A DNA stretch of 64,000 nucleotides from Brachyspira murdochii DSM 12563 (GTDB lineage Bacteria > Spirochaetota > Brachyspiria > Brachyspirales > Brachyspiraceae): positions 1,698,919 to 1,762,918 of the forward strand of contig NC_014150.1 of NCBI RefSeq assembly GCF_000092845.1, written 5' to 3'. The notes beneath the pieces are model-generated. The model did not search any database. It had not been told where the DNA came from and saw only the letters and a list, made by a program, of their open reading frames with translations. Below are positions 868 to 43,315 of the stretch, piece after piece. The stretch's first letter is position 1. Every line of letters starts with the position of its first letter. Position numbers and translations under genes: made by a program.

Positions 868-3800
868 ATGGACTTAGAAAAAAAACTTGAAGCATACTAT
901 AAGGGCTCTCCTATAGAAGATGATATGAAGAAATGCGAATCTACAAATGATTTCAGCAAAATAAGGAAGAATTCTTATGATTATTTTTATTATAGAGATG
1001 AGTTTTTGAAAGATTATTTTACTATAGAAGATGAAGCATTAAAGAAAAGATATGAACATTTCGTTAAGATACTTCTCTACGGAAATGACAAGGAAGGAGA
1101 AGGCGGAACTAGATACGTTATTCTTGATTATATAGTCAATAAAGATTTTGAAAAGTCACTCAGATATATGGCTTACGGATATGAGAAAAGACATAAAGAG
1201 AATGTAAGAACTCTAAATGGTGAAGAATTAATATATACAGTTTTTGAAGATTTTAATAAATACTTCAGTAAAGAGTTTGAAGAATACACAGATAAATATA
1301 TTGATATTATTAATAACAATGACAATAAAAAAATACTGCATAAAATGGGAAGAGATGCTGTAATACCATTGATTGCAATATGTTCTGTTATAAAAAATAA
1401 TAAAGAATGCGATGAAAAATACATAAATGCGGCTATAAAATCATTTGATGTTTTTCCAAATCTTTATGACACTTTAAATGTGATTGCTTCTCTTTTAGAT
1501 AAAAACGAAGCTGTAAAAAATAAATTTGTAGAAGTATTAAATAATAATGAAGAATATATTATTGATATGAATATTGAAATTGGACACTATTTAAGATTAT
1601 TAGATTACAGCAATCCTTATAAAGCTAAAGATAAATTCCTAAGAGCAATAAATTATCCAAACTCTTTTATATTTATAGCAAAACATTTTGAAGATTATTT
1701 TCATTATGAGTTTATTTATGGAGCAAGAGATTTATATTTAAACTATAGAGAAGATTTTTATAAAATTTATAATTTAGTAGGAAATGATTTAAAAAATGAT
1801 AGAAACAAAAGAATATTTATAGTGCTTAGCGGTATTTTATTAGAGCATAATGATAATAAAATAGACACAAATAATTTAAAAAAGTCAATACCTGTATTTC
1901 AAACTATAGTTAATAAATTTACAGAAGATAATTCGGATAGATATAATAAAAGACCAGCATTTACCACTACAGTAAAAATAGAAGAAATATTTGATAAAGA
2001 TAAAAATAAACTCTTTAATGAACTTATAAATTATTATACAGACAAAAAAAATATATACGATTTATACAGCAGATACAGATGGGCAAATACTCTGCCTGAA
2101 TATAGTCTTGATACAGAACTTTATTATTTATACTCTCTATTTAATTATGATAGTGCAGAAATGAAAAACTATAAAAAATTTGCTATTGATATTTTTAAAT
2201 ATCTGCCTGTTCAATTAGCAGTGAGAAAATATATAGAAGTGCAGGCATCTATAGGAAGTAAAACTCTAAAAGAAGTTATTGATAGTTTATTAAATAATAA
2301 AGAATTGAATATTACATTAAAAGAAATTCTCACTTCATACTATTTTGATTATGCAGGAGATCTTTCAAATTATTATTATGACTATGGCGGCAAATGCCTT
2401 CCTACATTATACAAAGAGCTTAGATGCGTAGATGAAAATAATAATGTTATTATAAACAGCGTAAAAGATGAATTGTTTAAAAGCTATTTTGATGAAGTGG
2501 TAAATATATTAAATGATGATAAGTTTATAAAAGATAATATAGCATCAAATAAAAATACAGCATTAGATATATTAAAGACTTTGTATAATAAATATAATTA
2601 TGAAAATTATCATTTGATTTATACAGTTCTTGAAAATACAAAGAGAGCCGAAGTAAAAAGACATTGTATCAAAGTTATTTCTGATAATGAAAAGATTACA
2701 AGAGAATATGTCGAAAAGATGTCAGAGAAGGTAAGATCATCAGAACTTAAAGGGGCATTAAAAAATATTATTAAGAATTGGAATCTTAAAAAATACGGCA
2801 ATAATTTCAAAAGTATTGATGAGGTTTTGGAGTTTATAGATACCTACTACAATACAAATTATGAAAAAAATATAAAATTCTTAGATGATGTTCATTTGAC
2901 AAAAGTTTTATACAATAATGGAAAATTGGCTGATGAGAGAATATTTAAATATATTATTATGGAATATATGAACTTAATTGAGCCTGCCAGATTAAAAGAC
3001 TGCGATATGCTTACTGAGATTCTTGATACCTCTTCATTTACTAATGCTTTAGAAATGTTGTATATTTATTGGAAAGATTCTAATTACGAAGCTAACAAAA
3101 AAAATATTTTAATACCTTATCTTTTATATTCTGATAATTCAAAGATAGATAAAGTTTATCCTCTTATAAAAGAGTTTGCTAAAGGTTCACGCACTGTTAT
3201 GGGTGCATTTATTGTAAAATGTATCGCATTAAACGGAAAAAGCTATGCATTAATATTAGTAGACAGCCTCACAAGAAAAGCACCTACTGCTAAAATAAAA
3301 GAAGTGGCAATAGAAACTATGGAAAATGTTGCCTACTTACTTGATATGACAGCCGATGAGCTTTCAGACAGAATAATACCTAATTTCGGATTTGACAGAA
3401 AAGGCGAAAAAGTTTTAAGCTATGGAGGAGAGGCAAAAAGAACATTTACATTATCAATAAACAATGATCTTGAACTCACAATAACAGATAATGACAAACA
3501 AAAAATAATAAAATCGCTCCCAGCTCCTAACAGCAAAGATGACAAAACAGAAGCAGATAATGCCAAAAAAGAATGCTCTGCTCTCAAAAAAGAGATAAAA
3601 ACTTTAATACAGAGTCAGAAAATAAGACTTCAGAAAGTATTATTAAACGGTAGAAAATGGACTTATGATAATTTCAAAACTGTATTTGTTGAAAACCCTA
3701 TAATGAATTTATTTGCATTAAAACTTATATGGGGCATTTATGATGAGAATAACAATTTAATAGAAAGTTTCAGATATATGGAAGACGGCACTTTTAATAC

Positions 3801-4308
3801 TGTTGATGAAGAAGAATACACTCTCAAAGAAAATGCTTTAATAACTTTAGTACACCCTTCAGAATTAGATTCTGACACTATAGCAAAATGGAAAACCCAA
3901 TTATCCGATTATGAGATATCGCAGCCTATAGAACAGCTTGATTTCAAATATTCTGATATTACAGAAAAAGATATAAGCGAAGATAAAATTACTTCTCTTA
4001 ATTCCAAAAAAATAAAAGCAGGCGTATTAATGTCATTAGCAAATAAATATGACATGGCTAGAGGCGAGACTATGGACGGCGGAAGTTTCTCTGAGTACAT
4101 ATTAAAAGATACTTACCTCAATATTGCTGTTCATATCTCATTTGATTATATGTATTTTGGAATGGACGCTAATGAAGATGTTGAGTTTGGCGATATAGAG
4201 TTTTGCGAGATAAATGAATGTATTGAAACTATAATTAATCCTCTAAAAGTAGAAAAAAGATTTGCTTCTTCAATTTACAGCATAGTAAAAAGCATTTTTG
4301 GAGACTAA
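868..4308 (+). CDS. Large DUF4132 (MolR-like) protein
   Basis: A 1146-residue protein with no signal peptide or membrane segment, so cytoplasmic. The start at 868 follows a perfect GGAGG at 856-860. The C-terminal third (about residue 830 on) carries the DUF4132 pattern: an arginine-rich helix (QKIRLQKVLLNGRKWT), then FVENPIMNLFALKLIWGIYD and FRYMEDGTF. The N-terminal two thirds are helical, rich in Tyr, Asn and Lys, and look like alpha-solenoid repeats. DUF4132 proteins such as E. coli MolR/YehI have no settled biochemical role. From about residue 665 it aligns with the whole of the protein at 8315-9712, which starts cleanly at that domain boundary. It stands alone behind its own promoter and before a hairpin. 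The family call is fairly firm; the function is unknown. Confidence 0.75.
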   Translation: MDLEKKLEAYYKGSPIEDDMKKCESTNDFSKIRKNSYDYFYYRDEFLKDYFTIEDEALKKRYEHFVKILLYGNDKEGEGGTRYVILDYIVNKDFEKSLRYMAYGYEKRHKENVRTLNGEELIYTVFEDFNKYFSKEFEEYTDKYIDIINNNDNKKILHKMGRDAVIPLIAICSVIKNNKECDEKYINAAIKSFDVFPNLYDTLNVIASLLDKNEAVKNKFVEVLNNNEEYIIDMNIEIGHYLRLLDYSNPYKAKDKFLRAINYPNSFIFIAKHFEDYFHYEFIYGARDLYLNYREDFYKIYNLVGNDLKNDRNKRIFIVLSGILLEHNDNKIDTNNLKKSIPVFQTIVNKFTEDNSDRYNKRPAFTTTVKIEEIFDKDKNKLFNELINYYTDKKNIYDLYSRYRWANTLPEYSLDTELYYLYSLFNYDSAEMKNYKKFAIDIFKYLPVQLAVRKYIEVQASIGSKTLKEVIDSLLNNKELNITLKEILTSYYFDYAGDLSNYYYDYGGKCLPTLYKELRCVDENNNVIINSVKDELFKSYFDEVVNILNDDKFIKDNIASNKNTALDILKTLYNKYNYENYHLIYTVLENTKRAEVKRHCIKVISDNEKITREYVEKMSEKVRSSELKGALKNIIKNWNLKKYGNNFKSIDEVLEFIDTYYNTNYEKNIKFLDDVHLTKVLYNNGKLADERIFKYIIMEYMNLIEPARLKDCDMLTEILDTSSFTNALEMLYIYWKDSNYEANKKNILIPYLLYSDNSKIDKVYPLIKEFAKGSRTVMGAFIVKCIALNGKSYALILVDSLTRKAPTAKIKEVAIETMENVAYLLDMTADELSDRIIPNFGFDRKGEKVLSYGGEAKRTFTLSINNDLELTITDNDKQKIIKSLPAPNSKDDKTEADNAKKECSALKKEIKTLIQSQKIRLQKVLLNGRKWTYDNFKTVFVENPIMNLFALKLIWGIYDENNNLIESFRYMEDGTFNTVDEEEYTLKENALITLVHPSELDSDTIAKWKTQLSDYEISQPIEQLDFKYSDITEKDISEDKITSLNSKKIKAGVLMSLANKYDMARGETMDGGSFSEYILKDTYLNIAVHISFDYMYFGMDANEDVEFGDIEFCEINECIETIINPLKVEKRFASSIYSIVKSIFGD

Positions 4309-4348
4309 TTTTATTTGATTGAAGTAAAATAAATTTATATTTTGATAT

Positions 4349-4382
4349 GTGGGGCTTTCCTATATGGTGAGCCCCATTTCTT
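4349..4382 (+). terminator. Probable terminator after the DUF4132 gene
   Basis: TGGGGCT (4350-4356) pairs perfectly with AGCCCCA (4370-4376) across a 13-base loop. The T run after it is short and interrupted. It lies in the 4309-4504 spacer between convergent genes. Confidence 0.55.
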
Positions 4383-4504
4383 TGATTATGATATTATGTT
4401 TATTTAAATATTTTATATTTGAACTCCTTTTTATTTAACGGCTATTTATTAATTTAACCATCATAAGATCATGATCTATATAAATATTTTCAATTATATC
4501 CTTT

Positions 4505-4903
4505 TTAACGTTTACCCATCCAACCTAGTTGTAAAATAAGTTTATAAGGGTCATAATAGATTTCATATATTACATAAGAATTATTGTAAGGCTCATACAA
4601 CTCTTCTAATTTTGATATAGTGTATAATATAAGGTTTTTAGTTATATCTGTAATATCTTTTTTTGTAATAGAAGGTAGACCATTATCTTCTGTGATAGTC
4701 ATACTCATTAATTCTATTTTTATACAGAAATCTGAAATATTTTTTTGTTTTGCTATTGATATACCATTAACTATATCTTTTTTTATTCTTTCTATTGAGG
4801 TATCATATTTTATAGTATATACAGGGTAACTAGAAGTATACACAGCTAGAGCAACGTTACTTATAACAATTACTCCTAATAAAATAATTAATAATTTTTT
4901 CAT
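4505..4903 (-). CDS. Small exported or membrane-anchored protein, unknown function
   Basis: A 132-residue protein that I do not recognise. It begins with a typical signal or anchor (MKKLLIILLGVIVISNVALA); the rest is a soluble domain of mixed strand and helix with several Tyr-rich stretches near the end. An AAAGGTGG ribosome site stands just before the ATG. It is the last of a set of minus-strand genes for small secreted proteins (4505-6092), 13 bases after its upstream neighbour and probably co-transcribed with it. No cysteine pairs, lipobox or catalytic motif is visible. It is likely to act in the periplasm or cell envelope. Confidence 0.6.
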   Translation of the reverse strand: MKKLLIILLGVIVISNVALAVYTSSYPVYTIKYDTSIERIKKDIVNGISIAKQKNISDFCIKIELMSMTITEDNGLPSITKKDITDITKNLILYTISKLEELYEPYNNSYVIYEIYYDPYKLILQLGWMGKR

Positions 4904-4916
4904 TTTTTATCCACCT

Positions 4917-5270
4917 TTAATATAAGTGTGAAAAATCAATTAAGAAAACCGTAGTATTTTTAGTTTCTTTAACTTTTTTACATTTTACATTTGATCCTGC
5001 TACTGTTTTTACAAATCTTTTTTCTATATCAGATCTAATATAATCGGTATTCCATTCGCTGTCTGTGAAATTAAATGTCATATAGAATGTGAAAATTCCG
5101 CTTCTTGTTAGGTCATCCATCCTTAAAACAGCCATATAAAACATCATTCTCCCATTATCAGCTTCATAAGGTTTATCACTAAAATCTTTAACATCTATCC
5201 TCTCATTATAGAGATTTTGTGAATAAACCATACCCGCTAAAACAAATAATAAGATTAATATTTTTCTCAT
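4917..5270 (-). CDS. Small secreted protein, unknown function
   Basis: A 117-residue protein with a clear cleavable signal peptide (MRKILILLFVLAGMVYSQ, cleavage likely near Ser17-Gln18). The mature part of about 100 residues is rich in aromatic and charged residues, and its strand pattern (FYMTFNFTDSEW, TTVFLIDFSH) suggests a small beta-rich fold. It has two half-cysteines in the last third only if the single VKCKK cysteine is counted with the signal region, so no disulphide is evident. It has a good ribosome site (GGAG before the ATG) and is followed closely by the 132-residue gene. I see no similarity to a named family. Confidence 0.6.
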   Translation of the reverse strand: MRKILILLFVLAGMVYSQNLYNERIDVKDFSDKPYEADNGRMMFYMAVLRMDDLTRSGIFTFYMTFNFTDSEWNTDYIRSDIEKRFVKTVAGSNVKCKKVKETKNTTVFLIDFSHLY

Positions 5271-40436: not shown

Positions 40437-40468
40437 TAATTTTTGATATGTAGTAAGTTTACATTAAC

Positions 40469-40600
40469 ATCTTCTACCATCCAGACTTTAACTGTCGGTT
40501 TTGGAGTTTCACCAAATCAGCTGTTTCTGAAAAAAGAATAATTTTCAAAAAAGCTCGCGGACTTTACCGCCGGTATGGAATTTCACCTAGCCCCGAAGAT
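40469..40600 (-). promoter_or_regulatory. FMN riboswitch (RFN element)
   Basis: On the minus strand the conserved RFN blocks occur in order: ATCTTCGGGGC, GGTGAAATTCC, ACCGGCGGTAAAGTCCGCGA, then after a variable stem GGTGAAACTCC, CCGACAGTTAAAGTCTGGAT and the closing GAAGAT that pairs with the start. The aptamer binds FMN and, with the terminator downstream, would switch the rib operon off when FMN is plentiful. Confidence 0.97.
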
Positions 40601-40613
40601 TTATTATACTAAT

Positions 40614-40642
40614 ATTATAATACAAAAAAAATTCATTGTCAA
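40614..40642 (-). promoter_or_regulatory. Consensus promoter of the rib operon
   Basis: On the minus strand TTGACA (40637-40642), 17 bases, TATAAT (40614-40619). The riboswitch begins about 14 bases after the -10 box. The vsr stop is only 18 bases upstream. Confidence 0.9.
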
Positions 40643-40659
40643 GTATCAGTAATTTATTA

Positions 40660-41085
40660 TTAATTATTATAATTTATTCTTATTTCTTCACATAATTTTT
40701 TAAGTCTTTCTTCTGCAATTTTATTTTTTAATTCACATTCCCAAACCACAATAACCTTCCATCCCATTGATTCAAGGTTCGCTATATTATTTTTATCTCT
40801 TTCTATATTACGTTTAATTTTAGGTATCCAGTAGTTTTGATTAGAAAGAGGCATTCTTCCTCTTGAGCAGTTATGCATATGCCAAAAACAGCCGTTTACA
40901 AAAATAATTGTATGATATTTTGGAAGTACTATATCAGGTTTTCCTGGGTATCTTTTATCATTCTTTCTATATCTGAACCCATTCTTAAAAAGATATTTTC
41001 TTACAATATTTTCGGGCCTTGTATTTTCACTTTTTATATTAGACATATTTTTGCTTCTTTCTTCATGAGTTTTATTATCAGCCAT
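40660..41085 (-). CDS. vsr: Very short patch repair endonuclease
   Basis: Vsr nicks next to T:G mismatches that arise when 5-methylcytosine made by the neighbouring methyltransferase deaminates. The family blocks are all present: RSKNMSNIKSENTRPE at the N-terminus, the catalytic core YPGKPDIVLPKYHTIIFVNG, and CFWHMHNC, the zinc-binding segment. Length 141, as usual. It is the last gene of a three-gene methyltransferase-endonuclease-vsr operon, 18 bases after the endonuclease gene. A GAGG site stands before the ATG. Confidence 0.95.
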   Translation of the reverse strand: MADNKTHEERSKNMSNIKSENTRPENIVRKYLFKNGFRYRKNDKRYPGKPDIVLPKYHTIIFVNGCFWHMHNCSRGRMPLSNQNYWIPKIKRNIERDKNNIANLESMGWKVIVVWECELKNKIAEERLKKLCEEIRINYNN

Positions 41086-41103
41086 TTCATCCTCTATACA
41101 ATA

Positions 41104-42267
41104 TTAAATTTCATCTGCATTTAATTTTTCTGCAAATTTTTCATAGCTTCCCCAGCTTTGTACATCTATGGAATACTCGCCTTCTTTTTCTTTAGTAACT
41201 ATTACAGAATCAATACCTAAAAATTCTAGTTTACTAATTGAAGCAAGCTCAAATTCTTTTAATTTTAACACATCTCTAAGAAGCCAATTGCTTAATGCTT
41301 TATTAGGATTTGTCATAAGAGCCTTGTTATTATCCTGACATACTTTAGCATTTAAGACTTCGCCAAGAGGAGTTTTAAGAATAAAAGGAATATCTCTTTC
41401 TGGAAAAAAATTTGGAAAATGATTTCTTACCAATGCAGGTATAGCTATATATACTTCATTAGGATCCCTTTTCCTTCCGCATGCATTCCATTGATTAAGT
41501 GCAGATCTTTCCTGAACTATTTTTATCTTATTTTTTACCGTATATAAAGGAAGAATAACATATTCTAGTTTTTGTTCTGACTCAATTGAAATTTTATCAT
41601 AGTCAATTTCATCTATGGAAAGAAGAAGTTTAGCAGGATTTTCAAATATTACAGCTTCTGCTGTATGACAGTTTTGCGGTATATCAAATTTTCTAAACAA
41701 TGTACTTTTTGAAAAATTAAATTTATACAAATGATTTCCATCTGTAAAATCTAAAGATTTTTCATTTTTACTGCCTTTTTCTTTTTCAATTCTTAAATTT
41801 GATATATCAATTTCATCATAATCTGTTTCAAAAAACAGCAGTAAATTTTTTCTTCTAGCTATAATATGATACTGAGACTGAGATATACCGTAAATATCTT
41901 TAGCAAGTTTAATTCTTTCATTTCTAAGATTTGCTAAAAACTCAGCAAGATCTTTATCATCTGTTTTCTCTCTAATCATACTTGAATTTTTATTAAATTC
42001 TGCTATTTTTTCAAAACTGTAATTCTTGTTTTCTCCTAGAAAAGTTTTTAATCCTATACCTGTATCATATATTTTGGCATCAAATGCAGTATCAGAACGG
42101 CTTAAATTTTTAGCATTGAAACAAAAGCAGAATAAATTTTCCATAGCTCTGTAATATATATAGGGACTGCTGCTGTCGCTGTATAGTCTTGAAAGTTTAG
42201 ATACTGACTGTATTAATTTTACATAATTTTTATTTTCTTTCTTATCCAGTTCAAAAAAATTAATCAT
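41104..42267 (-). CDS. Probable type II restriction endonuclease, cognate to the adjacent C5 methyltransferase
   Basis: Function is inferred from position between a C5-cytosine methyltransferase and vsr, on the same strand with 18-base gaps on both sides. The 387-residue protein has RAMENLFCFCFNAKNLSRSD followed by AFDAKIYDTGIGLKTFLG; the D-x-K/GxGxK arrangement could be a PD-(D/E)xK-type active site. The C-terminal 140 residues (PALVRNHFPNFFPERDIPF, then LSNWLLRDVLKL) look like a separate DNA-recognition domain. No HKD (PLD-type) motif was seen. The start is ATG 42267 with GAGG in front; ATG 42279 overlaps that site. The recognition sequence is unknown. Confidence 0.7.
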   Translation of the reverse strand: MINFFELDKKENKNYVKLIQSVSKLSRLYSDSSSPYIYYRAMENLFCFCFNAKNLSRSDTAFDAKIYDTGIGLKTFLGENKNYSFEKIAEFNKNSSMIREKTDDKDLAEFLANLRNERIKLAKDIYGISQSQYHIIARRKNLLLFFETDYDEIDISNLRIEKEKGSKNEKSLDFTDGNHLYKFNFSKSTLFRKFDIPQNCHTAEAVIFENPAKLLLSIDEIDYDKISIESEQKLEYVILPLYTVKNKIKIVQERSALNQWNACGRKRDPNEVYIAIPALVRNHFPNFFPERDIPFILKTPLGEVLNAKVCQDNNKALMTNPNKALSNWLLRDVLKLKEFELASISKLEFLGIDSVIVTKEKEGEYSIDVQSWGSYEKFAEKLNADEI

Positions 42268-42285
42268 TTTATACCTCATTTTTGA

Positions 42286-43221
42286 TTAACAGTCTATAAC
42301 CTTAAGAATATTATCTGCTATTTTTTTTACTAAAGGATAAACTATTGAATTTCCCGCCTGCTTATATAATTTAGAATTTGATTGTTTAGGAAGTTTAAAA
42401 TCTTTAGGGTATCCCTGAAAATTGAAGCATTCTCTAGGGGTTAATTTTCTTATACCATAATTGTCACGTATTATTGGAACATTATGTCCTCCTTCTCCCA
42501 TATTGGCAGTTAAAGTAGGACAAAGATTTGATTTGTTTTCTCTTACATAATGTCTTCTCCATTGGTATACTGTATCTTTATTTATAATATTTTCATTAAA
42601 AATTTTATAATATTTTGTGCTGTTATAATAATATATATCATCCTGTTTTTCATGGTCTATAAAATCATGAATAGTTTTAGTAAGTTCTACAGGTTCAGGA
42701 AATTTAAAATTAGAATAACTGCATACTTTTTCTTTGCTGAAAGCTGCAATAAATATTCTTTCTCTATTCTGCGGTATGTTTGAATATTCTGCTGAATTTA
42801 ATACTTTATATGAAACATAGTAGTTTAAATTTCTTAAAGTATTTATTATTGTTTTTAATGTATTTCCGTTATCATGGTTTTCTAAATTTTTTACGTTTTC
42901 AAGAAGTATAGCTTTAGGTTTATGATATTTTATTATTCTTGCTATATCAAAAAATAATGTACCTCTTGTATCATCAAAACCTTTTCTATATCCTGCTACA
43001 GAAAAAGGCTGGCATGGGAATCCTGCACAAAGTATATCATGTTCCGGAATATTTTTTTCATCTATCTCTGTAATATCTCCTTCAAGTACAGTATCAGGAA
43101 AATTTAATTTATATGTCTCTCTTGCATTAATATCTATTTCGCTTGCAAAAACACAATTTTCGGAATTAAAAGCTAAATGAAATCCTCCGACTCCTGCAAA
43201 TAAATCAATAAATCTGTACAT
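42286..43221 (-). CDS. dcm: DNA (cytosine-5-)-methyltransferase
   Basis: The C5-methyltransferase motifs appear in order: I (FIDLFAGVGGFHLAF), IV with the catalytic cysteine (AGFPCQPFSVAG), VI (ILLENVKNL), VIII (NIPQNRERIF), then a target-recognition region of ordinary size with TLTANMGEGGHNVP, IX (IRKLTPRECFNFQGYP) and X (QAGNSIVYPLVKKIA). Length 311. The start is ATG 43221; a TTG one codon upstream is less likely. AGGAAA is the ribosome site. First gene of the R-M-vsr operon; a 46-base gap-free frame then leads to the endonuclease. The name dcm is used in the general sense; target unknown. Confidence 0.95.
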   Translation of the reverse strand: MYRFIDLFAGVGGFHLAFNSENCVFASEIDINARETYKLNFPDTVLEGDITEIDEKNIPEHDILCAGFPCQPFSVAGYRKGFDDTRGTLFFDIARIIKYHKPKAILLENVKNLENHDNGNTLKTIINTLRNLNYYVSYKVLNSAEYSNIPQNRERIFIAAFSKEKVCSYSNFKFPEPVELTKTIHDFIDHEKQDDIYYYNSTKYYKIFNENIINKDTVYQWRRHYVRENKSNLCPTLTANMGEGGHNVPIIRDNYGIRKLTPRECFNFQGYPKDFKLPKQSNSKLYKQAGNSIVYPLVKKIADNILKVIDC

Positions 43222-43287
43222 CAAAATATTTCCTACAATAAGTAATTTTTAACTATTCTCGGCTAATTATATTAAATTTGACACTTT

Positions 43288-43315
43288 ATTATATAATCAT
43301 AAATATTTTTGTCAA
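43288..43315 (-). promoter_or_regulatory. Promoter of the R-M operon, overlapped by an inverted repeat
   Basis: On the minus strand TTGACA (43310-43315), 16 bases, TATAAT (43288-43293). The inverted repeat TTTGACA (43277-43283)/TGTCAAA (43310-43316) spans the -35 box and the start-site region. Confidence 0.8.

What the first reader, a model, noticed from the sequence alone, without database searches (positions are those of the whole stretch)
40660..43315. Compact C5 methyltransferase-endonuclease-Vsr operon with an unassigned endonuclease
Three tight minus-strand genes form an R-M unit with its own mismatch-repair nuclease. The methyltransferase and Vsr are clear from motifs, but the endonuclease has no HKD motif and only a tentative DxK/GxGxK site (FDAKIYDTGIGLKTF). 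Its C-terminal domain may be the recognition part. The operon is wedged between fbp and the rib promoter, which begins 18 bases from the vsr stop, as in an inserted accessory block.
Basis: partly seen in the sequence, partly recalled or inferred. Interest (0 to 1): 0.55.

Follow-up and report, generated by a model that had tools for sequence, protein, structure and literature searches.

The report
Restriction-modification operon with mismatch-repair nuclease
Three neighbouring genes in a Brachyspira chromosome form an ordinary bacterial DNA-cutting defence unit (a DNA methylase, its matching DNA cutter and a mutation-repair enzyme) that some relatives have and others lack; the cutter, which looked unassignable, belongs to a widespread family joining two known building blocks, probably aimed at the site GCNGC.

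Summary
In detail: three tight minus-strand genes encode a C5-cytosine methyltransferase (42286-43221), a 391-aa endonuclease (41104-42279) and Vsr (40660-41085), behind a perfect -35/-10 promoter and ending 17 bases before the rib promoter. The endonuclease can be assigned: a PADLOC type II model covers it (E 9e-124), and 369 of 404 candidate stretches in one genome scan encode relatives. Its C-terminal half is a B3-like DNA-binding domain of the NgoFVII/NgoAVII kind (Z 15.6). Its N-terminal half is not PLD, as relatives are named, but resembles PD-(D/E)XK nucleases (44 of the first 45 structural rows), with invariant E47, D67, G76-x-K78 and E94. Target most likely GCNGC, from the methyltransferase's recognition segment and a fragment match to Cac824I. 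The unit is accessory: the trio is in 4 of 26 genus genomes; empty junctions exist between a phosphatase-like gene and rib, not fbp and rib. Inferred mechanism: type II restriction, possibly two-site, with Vsr repairing deaminated methylcytosine. A new member of a known kind; the domain pairing is the interesting part.

The parts
42286..43221 (-). C5-cytosine DNA methyltransferase, 311 aa, with target-recognition segment YQWRRHYVRENKSNLCPTLTANMGEGGHNVP; predicted GCNGC
   Evidence: PF00145 E 1.4e-93; TIGR00675; same segment type in plasmid methylases beside annotated Bsp6I-family REases
41104..42279 (-). Type II restriction endonuclease, 391 aa: PD-(D/E)XK-like N-terminal domain plus B3-like C-terminal domain
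   Evidence: PDLC03479 E 9.4e-124; AlphaFold model pLDDT 92.1, pTM 0.88; structural matches
41590..42279 (-). N-terminal nuclease domain (about residues 1-230)
   Evidence: 44 of first 45 rows PD-(D/E)XK nucleases, several proteins recurring; PDLC03446 hits residues 8-207, E 7.4e-29
42046..42081 (-). Core of the proposed active site, D67 to K78 (D-x8-G-x-K); E47 (42139-42141) and E94 (41998-42000) also invariant
   Evidence: invariant in 51 of 51 sequences; D67 just before strand 68-70, K78 inside strand 73-81 of the model
41149..41577 (-). C-terminal B3-like DNA-binding domain (residues 235-377)
   Evidence: PF20731 E 2.7e-9, in 51 of 51 aligned sequences; R.NgoAVII B3 with cognate DNA, Z 15.6
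40660..41085 (-). Vsr mismatch endonuclease, 141 aa
   Evidence: PF03852 E 1.8e-32; Vsr structure 1cw0 E 3.1e-32, with the PGxPD and GCFWHxHxC stretches aligned
43288..43315 (-). Promoter of the operon, TTGACA-16-TATAAT, 12 of 12; by eye a TTGACA...TATAAT pair also precedes the methylase in the two relatives at the phosphatase-rib site
   Evidence: sequence
40614..40642 (-). Promoter of the downstream rib operon (neighbour, not part of the unit)
40465..40604 (-). FMN riboswitch of ribD (neighbour)
   Evidence: RF00050, 115 bits

Best explanation
A self-contained type II R-M unit. The methyltransferase puts m5C in GCNGC; the endonuclease cuts unmethylated GCNGC in incoming DNA with its N-terminal PD-(D/E)XK-like domain (variant site E47/D67/G-x-K78/E94), while its C-terminal B3 domain binds the same or a closely related site and acts as primary anchor or effector (type IIE-like); Vsr nicks at T:G mismatches that arise when m5C in the site deaminates (G5mCNGC to GTNGC) and so protects the host from the mutagenic cost. 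The block carries its own promoter and is gained or lost as a unit between lineages. Shown by computation: gene identities, domain folds, conservation, neighbours, presence/absence, occupied and empty junctions. Inferred: GCNGC, which residues are catalytic, two-site behaviour, the Vsr substrate, and activity in the cell.
For: Families. Fold: R.NgoAVII B3 Z 15.6; N-domain rows almost all PD-(D/E)XK nucleases. Conserved site in 51 of 51. Of 91 relative loci, 77 hold a related C5 methylase, 8 an N4/N6-type methylase (a ninth, L146, shows only a 26% hit and has a C5 methylase), 6 neither in the held flank, 14 a Vsr. GCNGC: recognition segment shared with methylases on plasmids beside annotated Bsp6I-family REases, 4 of 5 such plasmids read (Bsp6I = GCNGC is recalled; a methylase labelled Bsp6IM, MAGa4250, is given GCNGC in PMC9465063, passages, where the mark is m5C in one table and m4C by SMRT). 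Cac824I (CA_C1502) is a GCNGC enzyme tied to its gene by knock-out (PMC2817722 and PMC4736252, passages); a primer inside it encodes QKVAEFNK, identical to the family motif around K91-N96 (0 of 40 shuffled primers scored as high), another GSLSGLFK (2 of 39); relative L236 has QKVAEFNK and GALSGLFK. CglI/NgoAVII R-proteins and their B3 domains bind GCCGC (PMC4267653, passages). Accessory nature.
Against: No activity, methylome or cleavage data. Foldseek alone gave no N-domain hit at E 0.001 or better; the best Z (8.2) is moderate, and the VIA-align list is preselected by Foldseek with EcoRV, HincII and Holliday resolvases recurring. The canonical D/E of (D/E)-x-K is a glycine. Two of the four Cac824I primers gave no significant match (20 of 40 and 17 of 40 shuffles as good), and the CA_C1502 sequence itself was not obtained (0 of 393 genomes). 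GCNGC occurs 122 times in the 64-kb window (no expectation computed), so there is no sign of site avoidance, which a methylated host need not show. The type IIE idea rests on architecture alone.
Confidence: 0.75

Rival explanations
1. BfiI/NgoAVII-like logic: the B3 domain alone sets specificity and the N-terminal domain is a nonspecific cutter placed by it, possibly cleaving beside the site.
For: The B3 domain is the best-supported part (Z 15.6), and in CglI and NgoAVII the B3 domains carry recognition (PMC4267653 passages).
Against: If Cac824I really is 237 aa (CA_C1502 is given as a 714-bp gene, PMC4700727 passages) and belongs to this family, the N-domain recognises GCNGC by itself. No ATPase gene lies beside the unit, unlike NgoAVII. 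The N-domain has no PLD hit and no H-x-K.
Confidence: 0.25
2. The unit is a silent or decaying remnant: only the methylase and perhaps Vsr act, the nuclease is inactive here.
For: A related methylase without this nuclease exists in a near relative (G017, L133), and N-terminally shortened nucleases exist elsewhere (L187, L194).
Against: All three frames are intact, the residues invariant in 51 of 51 sequences are present, and the promoter is a perfect consensus.
Confidence: 0.12
3. A narrower or different target, such as GCSGC or GCWGC only, rather than all GCNGC.
For: C5 methylases for GCSGC, GCWGC and GCDGC are known (PMC10734518 and PMC8936443 passages); NgoFVII-type B3 enzymes see GCSGC or GCCGC (PMC4081073 and PMC4267653 passages).
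Against: The recognition segment is near-identical to that of Bsp6I-paired methylases, and extracts with Cac824I cut like Fnu4HI at GCNGC (PMC2817722 passages).
Confidence: 0.2
4. The block is old in the genus and lost in most lineages, rather than inserted.
For: It lies upstream of rib in three genomes whose rib leader sequences fall in two allele groups (G000, G008, G013).
Against: The five nearest genomes by intact ribD (G017, G023, G003, G022, G019; 93-97%) lack the nuclease; in G002 the trio sits elsewhere; relatives sit on plasmids and phages. The two cannot be separated firmly here, and no tree was built.
Confidence: 0.25

Closest known systems
Cac824I (CA_C1502, Clostridium acetobutylicum, GCNGC)
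   Same: Primer-encoded peptides match N-domain motifs; the PADLOC model PDLC03446 (237 positions) hits the N-domain at E 7.4e-29.
   Different: Reported gene is 714 bp (237 aa), so it may lack the B3 domain; that PDLC03446 represents Cac824I is inferred from the equal length only. Full sequence not seen.
NgoFVII / R.NgoAVII / R.CglI family (GCSGC, GCCGC)
   Same: Same B3-like C-terminal domain by profile (PF20731) and fold (Z 14.4-15.6); C5 methylase partner.
   Different: Theirs is a PLD (H-x-K) nuclease half; here PD-(D/E)XK-like without H-x-K. NgoAVII and CglI need an ATPase partner, absent here.
UbaLAI and EcoRII (CCWGG, type IIE; recalled except for the 5o63 row)
   Same: PD-(D/E)XK nuclease joined to a B3-like domain; 5o63 (UbaLAI B3) appears at Z 5.7.
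   Different: Different nuclease subfamily, target and domain order (their B3 is N-terminal, recalled).
Bsp6I-type R-M systems (GCNGC)
   Same: Methylase 52-54% identical with the same recognition segment.
   Different: Their annotated nucleases are only 171-190 aa (coordinates), too small to hold both domains.

Membership tests
Type II restriction-modification system | Methylase and cognate endonuclease encoded together | tested here: met
   85 of 91 relative loci hold a C5 (77) or N4/N6-type (8) methylase in the held flank
Type II restriction-modification system | Same specificity of methylase and nuclease, cleavage of unmodified DNA | not testable with these tools
   needs enzymes or methylome
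PD-(D/E)XK nucleases | Core fold | tested here: met
   N-domain model: 44 of first 45 VIA-align rows are PD-(D/E)XK nucleases (class by recall), best 3ndh Z 8.2, 179 aligned, rmsd 5.5; Foldseek alone gave none at E 0.001
PD-(D/E)XK nucleases | D...(D/E)-x-K catalytic motif | tested here: inconclusive
   D67...G76-x-K78 with invariant E47 and E94; D/E replaced by G, as in known variants that move the carboxylate (recalled)
NgoFVII/NgoAVII PLD endonucleases | B3-like C-terminal domain | tested here: met
   PF20731 in 51 of 51; Z 15.6 to 4rd5
NgoFVII/NgoAVII PLD endonucleases | N-terminal PLD domain with H-x-K motif | tested here: not met
   no PF09565 hit at E up to 10 for the window protein nor at E 0.01 in the family counts for 51 members, no H-x-K; true PLD members L007 and L008 hit PF09565 at 1.1e-25 and 3.9e-39
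NgoAVII/CglI ATP-dependent systems | Adjacent DEAD-type ATPase subunit | tested here: not met
   neighbours are fbp and ribD
Cac824I-like GCNGC endonucleases | Sequence relation to CA_C1502 | tested here: inconclusive
   one of four primer peptides clearly matches, one marginally, two do not; gene not fetched
Vsr mismatch endonucleases | Vsr family sequence, alignment to the solved Vsr | tested here: met
Dcm/EcoRII (CCWGG) partner of classical Vsr | Dcm-type recognition segment in the methylase | tested here: not met
   a plasmid protein annotated dcm (L232) has a different segment; that it is CCWGG-type is recalled
Type IIE endonucleases | Stimulation by a second copy of the site | not testable with these tools
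   architecture only

The most novel reading that the evidence does not exclude
A large, undescribed architecture of restriction enzymes: a Cac824I-like PD-(D/E)XK domain (which may act alone at GCNGC) fused to an NgoAVII-like B3 domain that reads a near-identical site, an independent parallel to UbaLAI/EcoRII in which a second reader of the same word was shared with an unrelated nuclease family, giving a two-site (type IIE) enzyme with a G-x-K active site; plasmid annotation names most of its members PLD nucleases.
Probability: 0.4. Interest if true: 0.45.

Novelty: new member of a known kind. Interest (0 to 1): 0.3.

Why it matters
It assigns an 'unassigned' endonuclease and indicates that relatives named 'restriction endonuclease PLD domain-containing protein' (5 of the 6 plasmid records found) carry a different nuclease fold, so their predicted chemistry (metal-dependent rather than covalent) changes. 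It also gives a testable target for transforming this Brachyspira (protect GCNGC), and a natural set in which one nuclease family is paired with C5 or N4/N6-type methylases, and with Vsr, a HhH-GPD glycosylase or neither, to study the mutational cost of m5C.

Tried and rejected
HKD/PLD assignment: rejected. CCWGG or CCNGG specificity, my first guess from memory: rejected on the recognition segment. Sequence search of the PDB with the nuclease or its profile: no useful hit. Promoter inverted repeat TTTGACA/TGTCAAA as an operator: seen by eye in the window, not in the two phosphatase-rib relatives, dropped. Terminal repeats or target duplication: none convincing; an imperfect AT-rich 24-nt pair near the ends in L107 has no counterpart at the ends in L127 or the window. 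Composition: the block is at most slightly AT-richer (G+C 0.24-0.30) than its flanks, no clear anomaly. Vsr beside C5 (13 of 77) against N4/N6-type methylase (0 of 8): Fisher p 0.35, no claim. Eleven of 85 nuclease loci lacked a full ATG-started frame in my script; of the nine read, L187 and L194 are shortened at the N-terminus and the other seven look intact with another start; all eleven were left out of the 51-row alignment, as were near-duplicates at 85% identity or more (74 usable, 50 kept, plus the window), and the partial viral locus L225. L158 was also left out of the N-domain alignment (50 rows). The 80 genome loci are the best-scoring ones of 369, so the neighbour counts lean to close relatives. 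Cac824I gene: 0 of 393 genomes, drawn from the order of another Clostridium-named genome. VIA-align: a family not listed there is not excluded. In print: the paper searches listed, by title and start of abstract, none that describes this PD-(D/E)XK plus B3 enzyme or this Brachyspira unit; several lists were cut (15 of 42, 20 of 75), most subscription journals are not held, and REBASE was not available.
Full report
What is there. The window lies in a single-contig genome of 3,241,804 bases; its nearest named relatives are Brachyspira, and the size fits B. murdochii (recalled). The scan found no terminator-like site on the minus strand between vsr and rib, so read-through into rib is possible.

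The methylase. It is a standard C5 enzyme. Its recognition segment, YQWRRHYVRENKSNLCPTLTANMGEGGHNVP, is near-identical to that of methylases on plasmids of Lactococcus, Enterococcus, Streptococcus and Clostridioides that sit next to genes annotated as Bsp6I-family endonucleases (4 of the 5 plasmids read that lack this nuclease; the fifth, in Bacillus subtilis, has a hypothetical gene there), and unlike that of a plasmid protein annotated dcm, L232. The five were picked from ten listed hits (H14-H22, H25). Bsp6I as GCNGC is recalled; PMC9465063 (passages) gives GCNGC for a methylase labelled Bsp6IM, though it gives the mark as m5C in one table and as m4C by SMRT.

The nuclease. PADLOC's type II model PDLC03479 covers residues 5-383 at 9.4e-124, and PDLC03446 (237 positions) residues 8-207 at 7.4e-29. 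Above Pfam's cut-off only the B3-like NgoFVII C-terminal domain is found, and it is matched in 51 of 51 aligned sequences. The AlphaFold model (51 sequences; pLDDT 92.1, pTM 0.88) shows two domains. Residues 235-376 match the R.NgoAVII B3 domain at Z 15.6, 15.4 and 14.4, far above the next B3 rows at about 7. The N-domain predicted alone (residues 1-232, pLDDT 93.3) gave 3ndh (ThaI, name recalled) at Z 8.2, SwaI 7.2, Eco15I and HinP1I 6.2, then NhoI, EcoRV, DpnI, HincII, MutH, HhaI and Holliday resolvases; of the first 45 rows all but one (8a4b) are PD-(D/E)XK nucleases, with EcoRV, HincII and the resolvases recurring (class membership by recall). Each single Z is moderate, the rows are Foldseek's own preselection, and Foldseek alone found nothing at E 0.001; the consistency of the list carries the argument. 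E47, D67, G76, K78 and E94 are invariant in 51 of 51; D67 lies just before one strand and K78 inside the next. There is no H-x-K, while PLD-type relatives in other genomes have it. Annotation names 5 of 6 plasmid relatives 'restriction endonuclease PLD domain-containing protein' and the sixth 'NgoFVII family', which the N-domain does not support.

Link to a tested enzyme. Cac824I of Clostridium acetobutylicum (CA_C1502) cuts GCNGC and its loss removes that activity (PMC2817722, PMC4736252; passages). Its sequence was not obtained, but primers printed in PMC2817722 encode QKVAEFNK (identical to relative L212; 0 of 40 shuffled primers reach the score) and GSLSGLFK (2 of 39); the two other primers give nothing (20 of 40 and 17 of 40). 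The gene is given as 714 bp, that is 237 aa (PMC4700727 passages), the length of PDLC03446. L236, which scores 447.7 bits against PDLC03446, has GALSGLFK and QKVAEFNK and does continue into a B3-like half. So Cac824I is probably a relative, perhaps without the B3 half; this is a lead, not a proof.

Relatives. In one genome-contig scan 404 stretches matched the patterns, 369 encode a relative and the best 80 were returned; 6 loci came from viral contigs, 6 plasmid and 3 phage records from tblastn. Of 91 loci tabulated (80 genome, 6 viral, 5 plasmid or phage), 77 hold a related C5 methylase, 8 an N4/N6-type methylase (PF01555 checked in one), 6 neither within the held flank, 14 a Vsr. A Caldicellulosiruptor plasmid has a HhH-GPD glycosylase beside the pair and no Vsr hit.

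Accessory block. In the genus, a full-length nuclease occurs in 5 of 26 genomes (G000, G002, G006, G008, G013), a sixth (G014) matching only in its C-terminal part with a PLD-type protein; methylase, nuclease and Vsr together in 4. The five nearest genomes by intact ribD (G017, G023, G003, G022, G019; 93-97%) lack the nuclease, as does G024, 98% by fbp. Of 23 other rib junctions read, in eight (G003, G004, G005, G009, G014, G019, G020, G023) a small phosphatase-like gene (DSPc, just under Pfam's cut-off) ends 53-56 bases before the riboswitch with nothing between; in two (G013, G008) the trio sits there, right of the phosphatase stop and left of the rib -35, apparently in place of about 14 intergenic bases; in thirteen something else, or too little sequence, lies upstream. 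In G000 the left neighbour is fbp, and the phosphatase gene lies at 1475944, about 263 kb away, beside the same two genes as in G022, so this lineage need not ever have had the phosphatase-rib arrangement. In G002 the trio lies elsewhere with no rib beside it. fbp and rib are apart in relatives where both are on one contig (for example 27 kb in G017, 153 kb in G023, 199 kb in G013, 230 kb in G024). Gain by transfer and ancient presence with loss are not separated.

Mechanism. Best reading: type II protection and cutting at GCNGC, B3 as second reader or anchor, Vsr repairing deaminated sites. The CglI and NgoAVII proteins and their B3 domains bind GCCGC (PMC4267653 passages), a sub-case of GCNGC, so both halves plausibly read the same word, as recalled for UbaLAI and EcoRII with CCWGG. 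Activity, target and two-site behaviour are untested.

Verdict. A real, intact, accessory but ordinary R-M unit. The endonuclease is assignable; its two-domain make-up is the only point of wider interest.

Noticed in passing
L213 (Brachyspira catarrhinii) 3196-5125; same gene pair in L005 and L130: In another Brachyspira the same nuclease family is paired with an N4/N6-type methylase (PF01555) instead of a C5 one, with no Vsr hit.
   Followed up: partly
L136 6237-6905: A thermophile plasmid carries a HhH-GPD glycosylase beside the same nuclease-methylase pair, possibly a functional stand-in for Vsr.
   Followed up: partly
L133 2455-3474 (G017) and L134 3774-4748 (G000 second methylase): C5 methylases without this nuclease: one 54% identical in a near relative of the window genome, one 50% identical elsewhere in the window genome.
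   Followed up: no
L070/L073 (G024) and L071/L074 (G007): ribD in G024 and G007 is hit in two pieces with stops inside, so the gene may be broken there.
   Followed up: no
L131 (G014) and L008: PLD-type NgoFVII relatives with the same B3 domain occur in the same genus and phylum, so the B3 half is seen on two nuclease folds in related hosts.
   Followed up: partly
control: The PDLC03479 model also matched one of 14 control genomes, Escherichia coli; not examined.
   Followed up: no
L187, L194 near 4001: Nuclease genes shortened at the N-terminus with the methylase displaced upstream, likely decaying units.
   Followed up: partly
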